From the NCBI RefSeq assembly GCF_008520305.1, contig NZ_ML703280.1:73331-137330 (forward strand): 64,000 nt of DNA. Direction: 5' to 3'. Within the stretch, counting starts at the first letter, position 1, and each line of letters starts with the position of its first letter. Shown here piece by piece: positions 7,943 through 12,034 of the stretch. A program made the translations under genes and the position numbers. This DNA comes from Mesorhizobium sp. SARCC-RB16n (lineage in GTDB: Bacteria > Pseudomonadota > Alphaproteobacteria > Rhizobiales > Rhizobiaceae). The notes under the pieces were generated by a model. That model was not told the DNA's origin. It did not search any database and saw nothing but the letters and a program-made list of their open reading frames with translations.

Positions 7943-7957
7943 CCAAGGGAGAGACCG

Positions 7958-8107
7958 ATGATCAGGAAGCTGAAAGACGGAAAATACCGGCTTTATTCAA
8001 GGAAGAAGGACGAGAAGACGGGGAAGCGGCGGAATCTGGGGACGTTCGATACGCGGGAAGCGGCGGAGAAGCATGAGAAGGAGGTGCAGTATTTTAAGCG
8101 GGGGTGA
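7958..8107 (+). CDS. 49-residue basic protein, copy 1
   Basis: A 49-residue, strongly basic protein with the core GKYRLYSRKKDEKTGKRRNL followed by GTFDTREAAEKHEKEVQYF. The short strand-strand-strand-helix layout resembles the AP2-like or arm-type DNA-binding domains of phage integrases, so nucleic-acid binding is a reasonable guess but unproven. ATG 7958 has GGGAG upstream. A nearly identical copy lies at 8906-9055, about 950 bp away, and the similarity extends a few bases past the stop. I know similar annotated proteins from Mesorhizobium only as hypothetical. Confidence 0.65.
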   Translation: MIRKLKDGKYRLYSRKKDEKTGKRRNLGTFDTREAAEKHEKEVQYFKRG

Positions 8108-8150
8108 GGGGAATTGTTTGGTGCTCGCCCCTACATCGGCGGGCGTGCGC

Positions 8151-8648: not shown

Positions 8649-8905
8649 GACTTGCCCCGCAGGTCTGAGCTTCAGGCGGCTCGATGGAGCCTAGCATAGC
8701 TGCGTTCTCGAACTCCACGGGGCGAGACAGCCGACCGGGAGGGCGTCGTTTGGCCGACAGGTCCGGGATCTTGCGGCCTGGCTGCGCCCATCATCGAGCA
8801 GCAATCAAGACCCCTGGATCGGCGGATGAGGTGAGGGGTGCACCTTCCCGGGGAAGGCCGATAGCCATGGGAAATTCTGATCGAGGCCAAATCCTGACTG
8901 GCGAG

Positions 8906-9055
8906 ATGATCCGCAAACTGAAAGGTGGAAAATACCGGCTTTATTCAAGGAAGAAGGACGAGAAGACGGGGAAGCGGCGGAATTTGGGGACGTTCGATAC
9001 GCGGGAGGCGGCGGAGAAGCATGAACGGGAGGTGCAGTATTTTAAAAGGGGGTGA
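8906..9055 (+). CDS. 49-residue basic protein, copy 2
   Basis: This differs from the copy at 7958 by very few residues (KGGK for KDGK, and HEREV for HEKEV), and the nucleotide sequence is nearly identical from the sixth codon to just past the stop. The frame is open upstream to 8684, but similarity to copy 1 begins at ATG 8906. Unlike copy 1 it has only a weak ribosome-binding site, so it may be poorly translated or be a duplication remnant. The function is unknown; nucleic-acid binding is possible. Confidence 0.55.
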   Translation: MIRKLKGGKYRLYSRKKDEKTGKRRNLGTFDTREAAEKHEREVQYFKRG

Positions 9056-9109
9056 GGGGGGCACGATGGGGCTCGCCATCAGCCAAAGGTAAAGGCCCCT
9101 CTCTTCAAG

Positions 9110-11767
9110 TTATAGCGATGCCAAAGACAACCATATCCCAGGCAGCATAAGCCGCTGTCCATTTTTTAACTGCAGTATTCGGGAATTCTCGCCGCTATAT
9201 AGTCCAAAATCTACGTTGCCGCCTTCGAAGACTAGGTGCTTGCCTTTTGATTTAGCGTAGCGACCAAGGCATCCGATGAAGCTTAATGGCGCAGGCTTAC
9301 TATCTTCTGGTAATACCCAATATGCTTGAGTGCCGGCGGTATCACCTGCAAGAAGGACATTTTTCAAGGTAACTTCAACTTCGTCCTCGGGAATAACAAA
9401 TCCAGAACTATGGTTTACCGTGCCCATAATTGCCCATTGATCACGCTGATGATCAGCTGGTTTGATGGGTGCGTAAATCAACTCATTCGCCAAAAGTTTT
9501 TCGAAGACATCAGCAACCGTCAACCACTCATTGTCCACGAGGCAATTTGCGATGGCCAAAGGGTCGCCGCCGAAATGTGCGGCGTGTGCCGAGATGAAAT
9601 TGCGCTCGCGAGCGTCAATGTCAGTGGCAAGCCATTTTTTGACTTGGCCAGTCGCCCATTGCTCGATGACAGGCCGCGACAGCAAGTCGCCAGAATCGCG
9701 TCGAGGTCCGCGCGGTGACAGGTCCAAACAGCCAACGAATTGCCTTCCATGGTCGACATGACCCTGTTTTTTCTTACCGAGCCCTCCAATTGTGTATACA
9801 GAAAGCTTGGCGCCAGACGGATTCAAAGATGCGCGTCCAATTATTTGCCCGTCGAAAATTATAGGTTCGATTATTTCTAAATTTTCTATAATAGCTTCAG
9901 GAATATCCTTTGTTTTTACGCCATTAATTCTCTGAAGCCAATTTTGGCCGTTTTCTTCTACCCAATTAGATGCGATTTTATGAATTTCTTCGTCAGGATC
10001 TTGTTTGATAAAAATATCAACATCGATCGCTGGGCATAGCATTTCGACGAGTTCAGGAAGAGTAAACTTCGTAGCGGGTCGCAAGTAAGATTTTCCGTCT
10101 TCGTACACCTGCGTCTGGTTGTCTCGATGCAGGATCTTGTCTTTCGTATCTGACGAGACAAAAATATCGACTACGGTAGAATAACTCATCTGGAAGTCTG
10201 AGGCGCCTTCCTTAACGATCGGACGCAACGCTAAGCCGGAACTGAAACTGAGCGTTCGTACCGCTGAAGATCCGGCGTCAAACGGTCGCGTGGTTACGTT
10301 GATTTCTTGGCTGATCATGAAGACCGAGAAAAAACCAATTCCAAAACGGCCAATCTTCTTGAAATGACTCCCGAGGAAACCCGGGCGCTCCTCCCGCAAT
10401 GTCCAAGACGACCAACCGCTTTCGCCGAAAGCTAAGAAAGGCCCTGTCAAAACCGCAGACGACATACCGATACCGTTGTCTGCCACTCGCAACCAATAAC
10501 CATTTTCCCCCGATTCATTCTGACCTGGCCGAAGGTCGATCATTAGCTTGCCGGCGAACTCACTTTCCAAAACCCTACGCGCTCTAACGGCGTCGACGGC
10601 GTTTTGTATCAATTCTCTCAGGGGGACGGTGTCGTCGTCTCCGTATAGTCCTCTGCCGCCGAACATTTGCACTATCTTGCCGGTGTCGTTGATCCGTACC
10701 TCTGCGTCGATAGGAACCCATCCGTCGGTTTGAACGTGCTTTGAAAAACGCCTAGGGTCAGAAATATCCTTAACTCTCGTGATTTCGAACGGCGGTAGGG
10801 AGGCATCACGGAGGACTTGGTCAGAGGCGCGTAATTCGCGATCAGCGGTGTTCGCGAGATCGAAAGCAATCCACCAAGCTCTCGCTTCCTTCTCATTAAA
10901 TGGCACGGAGCTGGTGACCATGAGCGCACTGGGGTCTTGGGAGTCAGGCGCAATGGACAATCGATTCTGGGCGGTCCAGTGGTCGAGGGAAGCTCCTTCA
11001 GGTTGAAGCAGGGCAAACTCGAAATCCGGTGCACGCGCAGCATCGATTTGAATCGCGTCGGCTGTTCGTATCAAAGCTGCAAGTACCATTGGACGAATTA
11101 GTCCGCGCTTATGATAAGGAGGAATAGGATTCTTCTGGCGCCCCAGGGATTCCAGCTTTGAGATGCTCCAGTGGTGGCTTGCTGCAATTTCGCCAATTAG
11201 CGGGCCGAAATGAGATCGGACCGTCGGGTCGTCAAGAAGGTAAAAATCGGCGCCAAGTACCGGGTGTTTAAATGTGGCGCTGAGAATGTTTTTTGCCTGC
11301 CGCGCGTGCAGCGCTCTCAGCACATCGAACAACACAGCCTTTCTCAGCCCAATGGATAGAGTCGCAAGGTCGTCGTTCCTATTACTTTGATCCCCCTGCA
11401 TCTTGGAGGCAAGCGCATCCTTCCATTCCGGTGTCTTGATTAGGGTCCGTATCCCGCCTTCGAAGGCAAGGACGGTATGGGCTGCGTCATGAATAAGGAT
11501 CGCGATACCGAAGATGAACGTTTCGATTGGCGACAGCTTGTATTTCTTTCCAACAATGATGTCAGCGCATTCCCATAGGCGTGTAAAGTGAGCCTCATCA
11601 TGTAGCGTCAAGCCCTCCGCATCCGCTGCGATACGCTTTGCGAGCGAACACGCGCGTTCCCAAGCAACTGAATACATTTCAACAAGATGGGTGGTCGCTT
11701 CATCATCGTCGGCGATCTTTCCAAAGGATGCGCGCCATAGCTGCGTTTTTTCGTAGGGTTTTGGCAT
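9110..11767 (-). CDS. HD phosphohydrolase-HSP90-like ATPase fusion protein
   Basis: An 885-residue protein. The N-terminal third is an HD domain with the ligands in place: H60 (HDEAHFTRLW), H93-D94 (LIHDAAH), H198-H199 (AASHHW) and D237 (LIRTADAIQID). Residues about 370-560 form a GHKL ATPase of HSP90 type: N-box LRELIQNAVDAV (E385, N389), G1 box DNGIGM (430-435) and G2 box GRFGIGF (473-479). The rest (about 560-885) is unassigned. An HD hydrolase joined to an HSP90-like ATPase suggests a nucleotide- or phosphate-ester-cleaving effector controlled by an ATP-driven clamp. HSP90-like ATPases recur in bacterial conflict and defence systems, so a defence role is inferred, not shown. Base composition is near 50% GC, well below the neighbours, which suggests transfer. 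ATG 11767 is chosen because AGGAAG precedes it; the frame is open to 11800. No partner gene is adjacent. Confidence 0.82.
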   Translation of the reverse strand: MPKPYEKTQLWRASFGKIADDDEATTHLVEMYSVAWERACSLAKRIAADAEGLTLHDEAHFTRLWECADIIVGKKYKLSPIETFIFGIAILIHDAAHTVLAFEGGIRTLIKTPEWKDALASKMQGDQSNRNDDLATLSIGLRKAVLFDVLRALHARQAKNILSATFKHPVLGADFYLLDDPTVRSHFGPLIGEIAASHHWSISKLESLGRQKNPIPPYHKRGLIRPMVLAALIRTADAIQIDAARAPDFEFALLQPEGASLDHWTAQNRLSIAPDSQDPSALMVTSSVPFNEKEARAWWIAFDLANTADRELRASDQVLRDASLPPFEITRVKDISDPRRFSKHVQTDGWVPIDAEVRINDTGKIVQMFGGRGLYGDDDTVPLRELIQNAVDAVRARRVLESEFAGKLMIDLRPGQNESGENGYWLRVADNGIGMSSAVLTGPFLAFGESGWSSWTLREERPGFLGSHFKKIGRFGIGFFSVFMISQEINVTTRPFDAGSSAVRTLSFSSGLALRPIVKEGASDFQMSYSTVVDIFVSSDTKDKILHRDNQTQVYEDGKSYLRPATKFTLPELVEMLCPAIDVDIFIKQDPDEEIHKIASNWVEENGQNWLQRINGVKTKDIPEAIIENLEIIEPIIFDGQIIGRASLNPSGAKLSVYTIGGLGKKKQGHVDHGRQFVGCLDLSPRGPRRDSGDLLSRPVIEQWATGQVKKWLATDIDARERNFISAHAAHFGGDPLAIANCLVDNEWLTVADVFEKLLANELIYAPIKPADHQRDQWAIMGTVNHSSGFVIPEDEVEVTLKNVLLAGDTAGTQAYWVLPEDSKPAPLSFIGCLGRYAKSKGKHLVFEGGNVDFGLYSGENSRILQLKNGQRLMLPGIWLSLASL

Positions 11768-11800
11768 AGCTTCCTGCTTAAGCAAAATTCCGAGTCGCAA

Positions 11801-12034
11801 AGCCGTTGTACAATAGATTTTTCTCCTAACAACCGAACGGAACTATGAAAAACGGGATTCGTAAGCGGCTAGCTAGTTTTTAAGCGACTAAGTTGGCGTT
11901 ACGTCGGCTGTGGCGAACCGCTGCGGGCACGCCCGTCCGAAAACTTCAACTTCTACCGTCATAGAATGAAGCCGAATTCCCCCTAGGGTGGTGCCAGAAA
12001 ATAGGCTTCCAACGCTTATCTCACCCCCTCCGCA
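11801..12034. other. Gap between the HD-HSP90 gene and minC
   Basis: The first ~100 bases are AT-rich like the HD-HSP90 gene and probably hold its promoter. The rest rises to chromosomal composition toward minC. I see no gene, repeat or RNA here. Confidence 0.4.

What the first reader, a model, noticed from the sequence alone, without database searches (positions are those of the whole stretch)
9110..11767. HD phosphohydrolase fused to an HSP90-like ATPase in a low-GC island
Both domains keep their catalytic residues (HD: H60, H93-D94, H198-H199, D237; ATPase: E385, N389, DNGIGM, GRFGIGF). The gene is markedly lower in GC than its neighbours and stands alone next to the core min operon. The architecture suggests an ATP-gated nucleotide- or phosphate-ester-cleaving effector, possibly anti-phage. 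HSP90-like ATPases are known in conflict systems; the role here is inference.
Basis: partly seen in the sequence, partly recalled or inferred. Interest (0 to 1): 0.75.

Follow-up and report, generated by a model that had tools for sequence, protein, structure and literature searches.

The report
HD hydrolase fused to HSP90-like ATPase
A lone foreign-looking gene in a rhizobial genome encodes a predicted phosphate-ester-cutting enzyme fused to an HSP90-like ATP switch; some of its relatives sit in prophages, on a plasmid or beside known anti-phage genes, so it is probably an undescribed bacterial defence protein.

Summary
It joins a Pfam HD-CE domain (residues 52-314, E 8e-44) to an HSP90-like N+middle module. 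Composition is foreign: GC 50.4% against 65.4% for the window outside the segment.

The family is patchy: full-length relatives in 0 of 61 genomes of the window's genus and matches in 3 of 385 of its class (one broken).

In 27 of 27 aligned members (a chosen set) the HD residues H56, H60, H93, D94, H154, H198, D237 and the ATPase residues E385, N389, D430, G432, G434, G476, G478 are kept.

Relatives sit right behind CI-type prophage repressors, in the gpA–portal slot of a P2-like phage (a published defence hotspot), beside an integrase, on a plasmid next to a TIR-NLR, and beside Old, PD-Lambda-1, PDC-S06 and (a broken copy) LmuB-like genes. A size-matched but not lineage-matched control was nearly empty; the contrast is statistically modest.

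Best reading: an ATP-gated, phosphodiesterase-type effector of phage defence or superinfection exclusion, with the hypervariable C-terminus as sensor. Nothing was tested at the bench; the substrate is unknown.

The parts
9110..11767 (-). HD-CE / HSP90-like ATPase fusion gene, 885 aa, ATG start at 11767
10682..11767 (-). N-terminal HD-CE hydrolase part (residues 1-362): H56, H60, H93-D94, H154, H198, D237 invariant in 27 of 27; modelled alone at pLDDT 88.0, pTM 0.89; best structural neighbours PPX/GppA HD parts and cyclic-nucleotide PDEs, not decisive
10238..10687 (-). HSP90-like (GHKL) ATPase domain, about residues 361-510: E385, N389, DNGIGM 430-435, GRFGIGF 473-479
9638..10237 (-). HSP90 middle-domain-like part, about residues 511-710 (mean pairwise identity 0.24-0.25 over 21 close members)
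9113..9637 (-). hypervariable C-terminal part, about residues 711-885 (mean pairwise identity 0.14-0.15; model confidence falls below 50 in 761-828 and 848-885); candidate sensor (inference)
9060..12033 (.). lineage-specific low-GC segment (GC 0.505) between two stretches shared with relative G072
8905..9059 (.). second copy of a 155-bp element (first copy 7957-8111, 92% identical) abutting the left edge of the segment
12095..14180 (+). minC, minD, minE: core neighbours, divergent, not part of the system

Best explanation
A single-gene, horizontally moving anti-phage (superinfection-exclusion) protein. Proposed mechanism: the HSP90-like N+middle module dimerises and closes on ATP, as HSP90 does; an infection cue is read by the hypervariable C-terminal part; the clamp movement switches on the N-terminal HD domain, a metal-dependent phosphodiesterase that cuts a nucleotide, a cyclic nucleotide or another phosphate ester that the phage, or the cell, cannot spare. 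Shown: the fusion, the intact active-site residues, the foreign composition, the patchy spread, the positions in prophages and near known defence genes. Predicted: the folds. Inferred: defence function, ATP gating, sensor role of the C-terminus, chemistry and substrate.
Confidence: 0.62

Rival explanations
1. Counter-defence or signalling modulator: the HD domain destroys immune second messengers (cyclic oligonucleotides), and the prophage keeps it to protect itself or to restrain other defences rather than to stop phages.
For: Nearest structural neighbours include cyclic-nucleotide phosphodiesterases, and the ligand layout parallels the c-di-GMP phosphodiesterase PmGH; found on mobile elements.
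Against: Placed behind lysogeny repressors and beside defence genes, where exclusion genes are expected; phage anti-immune enzymes are usually small, without a large ATP switch (general knowledge, no call).
Confidence: 0.15
2. Stress-response chaperone variant: an HSP90 paralogue whose HD domain tunes nucleotide or (p)ppGpp-like signals, unrelated to phages.
For: Clear HSP90 N+middle module and HSP90-like sequence matches.
Against: Rare and patchy, foreign composition, prophage positions.
Confidence: 0.12
3. Toxin-like cargo gene that aids lysogeny or punishes loss of the element rather than sensing infection.
For: Single gene in prophages and on a plasmid.
Against: No common partner gene recurs in the clustering, although frames under 70 aa were not included there and a small antitoxin would have been missed; size and ATP switch fit a regulated sensor better (inference).
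Confidence: 0.07
4. Chance survivor: horizontally acquired DNA without present function in this strain.
For: Three relatives are broken (L003, L006/L100, G281/L088), so loss is common.
Against: The window copy is intact over 885 codons with the conserved catalytic residues.
Confidence: 0.04

Closest known systems
VcSduA (Shedu with N-terminal GHKL ATPase), PMC12137116
   Same: One protein with a GHKL ATPase and a phosphodiester-cutting effector domain; GHKL motifs kept; ATPase control of the effector is proposed there too (passages read).
   Different: There the ATPase is N-terminal and the effector a C-terminal PD-(D/E)xK nuclease; here an HD domain comes first and the ATPase is of HSP90 type with a middle domain.
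Pfam HD-CE (PF24391)
   Same: The HD part is a member well over the cut-off (150.8 bits against 27); 16 of 16 members of A3 match at E 0.001 or better.
   Different: Pfam names a domain only; no relevant paper came up for the name or accession. That CE stands for conflict effector is recalled, not checked.
HSP90/HtpG chaperones
   Same: N and middle domain fold and GHKL motifs.
   Different: 55.8 and 67.6 bits against cut-offs of 371 and 455; HD domain in front; variable, poorly modelled C-terminus.
TmtA and Type II restriction-enzyme ATPases in PADLOC
   Same: Weak matches in the ATPase part.
   Different: The matches shown for the window protein cover only residues 385-499.
HD-GYP phosphodiesterase PmGH, PMC4159591
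   Same: Order and helix positions of H189, H221-D222, H250, H276, D305 parallel H60, H93-D94, H154, H198, D237 (passages read; helices).
   Different: No second His (H277) in 21 of 27 members; His instead of Glu four places before the first ligand; no HD-GYP family among the Pfam matches.
HD domain as predicted effector in conflict systems, PMC8195603
   Same: A passage lists the nucleotide phosphodiesterase HD domain among potential enzymatic effector domains joined to TRADD-N domains.
   Different: A different architecture, without an HSP90-like ATPase in the passage seen.

Membership tests
HD-CE domain family (PF24391) | Match above the curated cut-off over the whole model | tested here: met
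   150.8 bits against 27, model 3-263 of 263
HD superfamily of metal phosphohydrolases | H...HD...D ligand set on a helical fold | tested here: met
   H60, H93-D94, D237 plus H154, H198 invariant in 27 of 27 chosen members; helical model
HD superfamily of metal phosphohydrolases | Hydrolysis of a phosphate ester | not testable with these tools
   needs purified protein
Class I cyclic-nucleotide phosphodiesterases (PF00233) | Match to the PDEase_I model and fold | tested here: inconclusive
GHKL ATPases | Motifs E..N, DxGxG, GxxGxG | tested here: met
   E385, N389, D430, G432, G434, G476, G478 invariant in 27 of 27, G473 in 24 of 27; HATPase_c_3 match in 16 of 16 members of A3
HtpG (HSP90 equivalog) | Whole-protein score above the NCBIfam cut-off | tested here: not met
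   55.8 bits against 371; the related PRK14083 model 67.6 against 455
HSP90 fold | N plus middle domain arrangement | tested here: met
Shedu (DUF4263) | DUF4263 nuclease domain | tested here: not met
   not among the four Pfam matches up to E 1
Known anti-phage systems in PADLOC-DB 2.0.0 (2023) | Whole-protein match to a defence model | tested here: not met
   only local matches, best E 3.4e-4 for the window protein and 7.9e-6 among 16 members
Anti-phage defence gene | Protection in a phage challenge | not testable with these tools
   bench test needed
Anti-phage defence gene | Genomic association with defence genes or prophage defence sites, beyond a control | tested here: inconclusive
   individual loci are clear, but the count against the control is modest, Fisher p 0.21 to 0.035

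The most novel reading that the evidence does not exclude
An undescribed class of bacterial immune proteins in which an HSP90-type ATP clamp, whose variable C-terminus senses infection, drives an HD-family phosphodiesterase: an immune sensor built on an HSP90 chassis rather than on a P-loop STAND or SMC ATPase.
Probability: 0.35. Interest if true: 0.82.

Novelty: new variant of a known kind. Interest (0 to 1): 0.62.

Why it matters
If true, HSP90-type clamps join the ATP switches known to gate immune effectors, and a named but unexplained domain (HD-CE) gains a setting in which its substrate can be sought. Prophage copies that sit behind the lysogeny repressor make the idea testable in ordinary laboratory strains.

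Tried and rejected
Core-gene reading rejected: relatives carry other genes at the minC site. Recurrent operon partner: the largest recurring neighbour groups (4-5 loci) are the prophage regulators; the others recur in 2-3 loci and none is a common partner (frames under 70 aa not included). Phage collection with the window protein: no match; with L062's protein 6 records, ATPase part only. Plasmids with L062's protein: 105 records, of which the 20 listed are the Nonomuraea, Zymomonas and Rhizobium copies already known, HtpG-type ATPase matches, and partial matches in Aliarcobacter butzleri (24%, 53% covered) and Priestia megaterium that I did not follow. E. coli genomes with L062 DNA: no match. 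The single-protein scans of genome contigs and viral contigs found nothing. Paper searches (listings and starts of abstracts seen) showed none that I recognised as describing this fusion; the library lacks most subscription journals. DefensePredictor (PMC13092281), searched by words, names 'HATPase' once, in the legend of a figure of predicted systems with unvalidated domains; I could not see whether that is this protein, and the figure is not held. PMC7159879, PMC8195603, PMC10853773, PMC3710099 and PMC7824862 were searched by words only. Foldseek of the HD model: 0 matches at E 0.001. PDB sequence search with the HD profile: one match, E 0.29. The RT-like HD-CE protein: no PDB sequence match. 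PF00233 in 31 genomes: one short match, no use. Promoter/terminator scan: no more sites than in shuffles. HD-CE in any setting: 2 of 240 and 15 of 240 genomes; of the 17 matches, five (G844, G679, G751, G774, G648) were not fetched further.

Rows left out before counts: L004/L101, L005/L102, L006/L100 are the same places; L007 and L008 gave identical scores and are counted once. L062 and L063 are close copies and were both kept. The broken copies (L003, L006/L100, L088) were left out of the 27-row alignment but kept in the 23-locus neighbour count; the six divergent loci were left out of the neighbour count. HD-CE proteins that the family profile did not reach (L095-L099) were left out of the alignment. 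The 27 rows are thus a chosen set, 21 close and 6 divergent. In one search the tool scored two candidates in most genomes, so weak or extra copies could be missed. L104 was fetched and not used.

Full report
WHAT IS THERE. The + strand of 9110-11767 does not code. The minus strand reads 885 codons from ATG 11767 to a stop at 9110. Residues 52-314 match Pfam HD-CE (PF24391, 150.8 bits, cut-off 27) and 383-497 match HATPase_c_3 (26.5 bits, cut-off 25). NCBIfam's HSP90-type models match 374-507 but far below their cut-offs. PADLOC gives only weak matches in the ATPase part.

The gene's GC is 0.504 and GC3 0.516. The window outside 9060-12033 is 0.654, six other long frames have GC3 0.74-0.89, and no 2658-bp stretch away from the gene is below 0.611. 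minC, minD and minE lie beside it in divergent orientation.

THE SITE. Mesorhizobium is my guess, from a Mesorhizobium huakuii plasmid that matches 37% of a 24-kb piece of the window at 87% identity. In these relatives the DNA from about window 12033 rightwards is shared, but the genes upstream of minC differ. In G072 the left flank up to about 8111 is shared as well, with some 10 kb of other genes between. So the gene lies in a lineage-specific segment of about 3 kb, bounded on the left by the second copy of a 155-bp element.

SPREAD. The family profile matched 33 of 61 genomes of that genus, none over the full length: the matches are mostly short ATPase-domain ones, and G225 has a divergent 955-aa HD-ATPase protein. 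In the class sample 3 of 385 genomes matched at E 1e-40, one with a broken copy; the tool scored only two candidates in most genomes. HD-CE in any setting was found at E 1e-8 in 2 of 240 genomes of the class sample and 15 of 240 of the phylum sample around the Opitutia genome (which is itself one of the 15), and in 0 of 14 control genomes. Two of the weakest of these proteins, inspected by eye, look like PPX/GppA proteins.

Relatives of the whole architecture were found in a Zymomonas plasmid and Nonomuraea, an Opitutia MAG, Pelagibacterium and Bradyrhizobium, and 14 viral contigs, two of which gave identical scores. Three relatives are broken: Rhizobium L003, where the match ends after about 130 residues beside a frame that reads like a transposase; Bradyrhizobium L006/L100, in two frames; and G281.

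A tree of 27 rows pairs Pelagibacterium with a verrucomicrobial copy (99/100). It puts the window protein with G120's copy and a viral-contig copy (100/99), inside a set of seven that holds the Zymomonas plasmid and phage L007 copies (99/98). The tool warned of long branches, among them L065 and the divergent rows.

CONSERVATION AND FOLD. In the 27-row alignment H56, H60, H93, D94, R151, H154, H198, R234, D237, E385, N389, D392, D430, G432, G434, M435, G476 and G478 are invariant; G473 is kept in 24 and H199 in 6. I chose these rows (21 close, 6 divergent), without the broken copies. Among the 21 close rows mean pairwise identity is 0.44 in the HD core, 0.46 in the ATPase, 0.24-0.25 in the middle part and 0.14-0.15 in the last 175 residues. 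The HD part alone models well (pLDDT 88.0, pTM 0.89), the whole protein less so (74.8, pTM 0.67).

NEIGHBOURHOODS. PHROGs identify the gene immediately upstream, on the same strand within 80 bp, as a CI-type repressor in L007, L062, L065 and L066; in L061 one frame lies between. In L063 the upstream gene clusters with L062's repressor but was not scanned. L010's copy lies between a gpA-type replication nickase and the portal protein, the interval that PMC9122126 describes in P2-like phages as a hotspot of anti-phage systems, holding old and tin in P2 (passages read). L057's copy adjoins an integrase. L064's lies 3 kb from one, L059's among phage head and terminase genes, L060's beside a Rha-like regulator; L009's neighbour has a weak tape-measure match and L058's tested neighbour none.

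Ten neighbour proteins that I picked for looking defence-like gave PADLOC matches to TIR-NLR (L001), LmuB (L003), PDC-S06 (L089), Old (L101) and PD-Lambda-1 (L062); L009's second ATPase matched a restriction-enzyme model; four of the ten had no match at E 1e-4.

As a less biased test, all 106 called frames of at least 150 aa within 3 kb of 23 loci were scanned at E 1e-20. The tally names PDC-S06, Old (with the related AriA, GajA and ATPase-Toprim models), PD-Lambda-1, TIR-NLR, LmuB, mad3, a SAVED-HNH/effector endonuclease and PDC-M68A; it does not tell the loci of the last three. The control, 103 frames from window 12000-64000 and five minC regions, gave one match, mad3. The sets are alike in size (38,591 and 37,681 residues) but not matched for lineage or phage content, and my frame calling is crude in GC-rich DNA. 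Fisher's p is 0.21 for 5 against 1 and 0.035 for 8 against 1: suggestive, not proof. Searching a viral collection also selects for phage settings; the informative part is the position inside the phages.

MECHANISM. Prophage genes next to the repressor are likely expressed in the lysogen, which suits exclusion of other phages. The fusion of an HSP90-type clamp with an HD phosphohydrolase suggests a switch: ATP-driven closing controls the HD site. VcSduA offers a precedent, as its GHKL ATPase and nuclease residues are both needed for protection (PMC12137116, passages read). The variable C-terminus is the likeliest sensor. All of this paragraph apart from the VcSduA result is inference.

NOVELTY. 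The HD-CE domain is named in Pfam, and GHKL-gated defence effectors are known, so I file the family as a new variant of a known kind. In ten searches of the library I recognised no paper that describes this fusion. Subscription papers are mostly missing there, and one predicted-system figure in PMC13092281 that names a HATPase could not be seen, so prior description or prediction cannot be excluded.

Noticed in passing
L095:9254-12667 (genome G702, phylum sample around the Opitutia genome): A 1137-aa frame with a YVDD stretch that reads like a reverse transcriptase in its N-terminal half and an HD-CE domain (HNEEH ... HD) towards its C-terminus; no PDB sequence match. It suggests that HD-CE may also serve an RT-based system; the RT reading is by eye only.
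   Followed up: partly
window 7957-8111 and 8905-9059: A 155-bp element in two copies, 92% identical; in relative G072 homology to both stops at the same base, and the second copy abuts the foreign segment, so it may mark a recombination breakpoint.
   Followed up: partly
L052:12180-15047 (G225, same genus as G139): A divergent 955-aa HD plus HSP90-like ATPase protein, about 19% identical to the window protein.
   Followed up: partly
L009:4817-6793: A second HSP90-like ATPase gene (HATPase_c_3, E 1.4e-16; PADLOC type II restriction-enzyme model, E 2.1e-12) about 3 kb from the family member on a viral contig.
   Followed up: partly
L060:9173-9658 and L065:12739-13254: Related small (161 and 171 aa) frames, possibly membrane proteins by my reading, antiparallel beside the family gene on two viral contigs; L060's has no Pfam or PADLOC match at E 1e-4.
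   Followed up: partly
L003:7427-9916 (Rhizobium plasmid): An SMC/LmuB-like ATPase gene 49 bp upstream of the broken copy on the same strand.
   Followed up: partly
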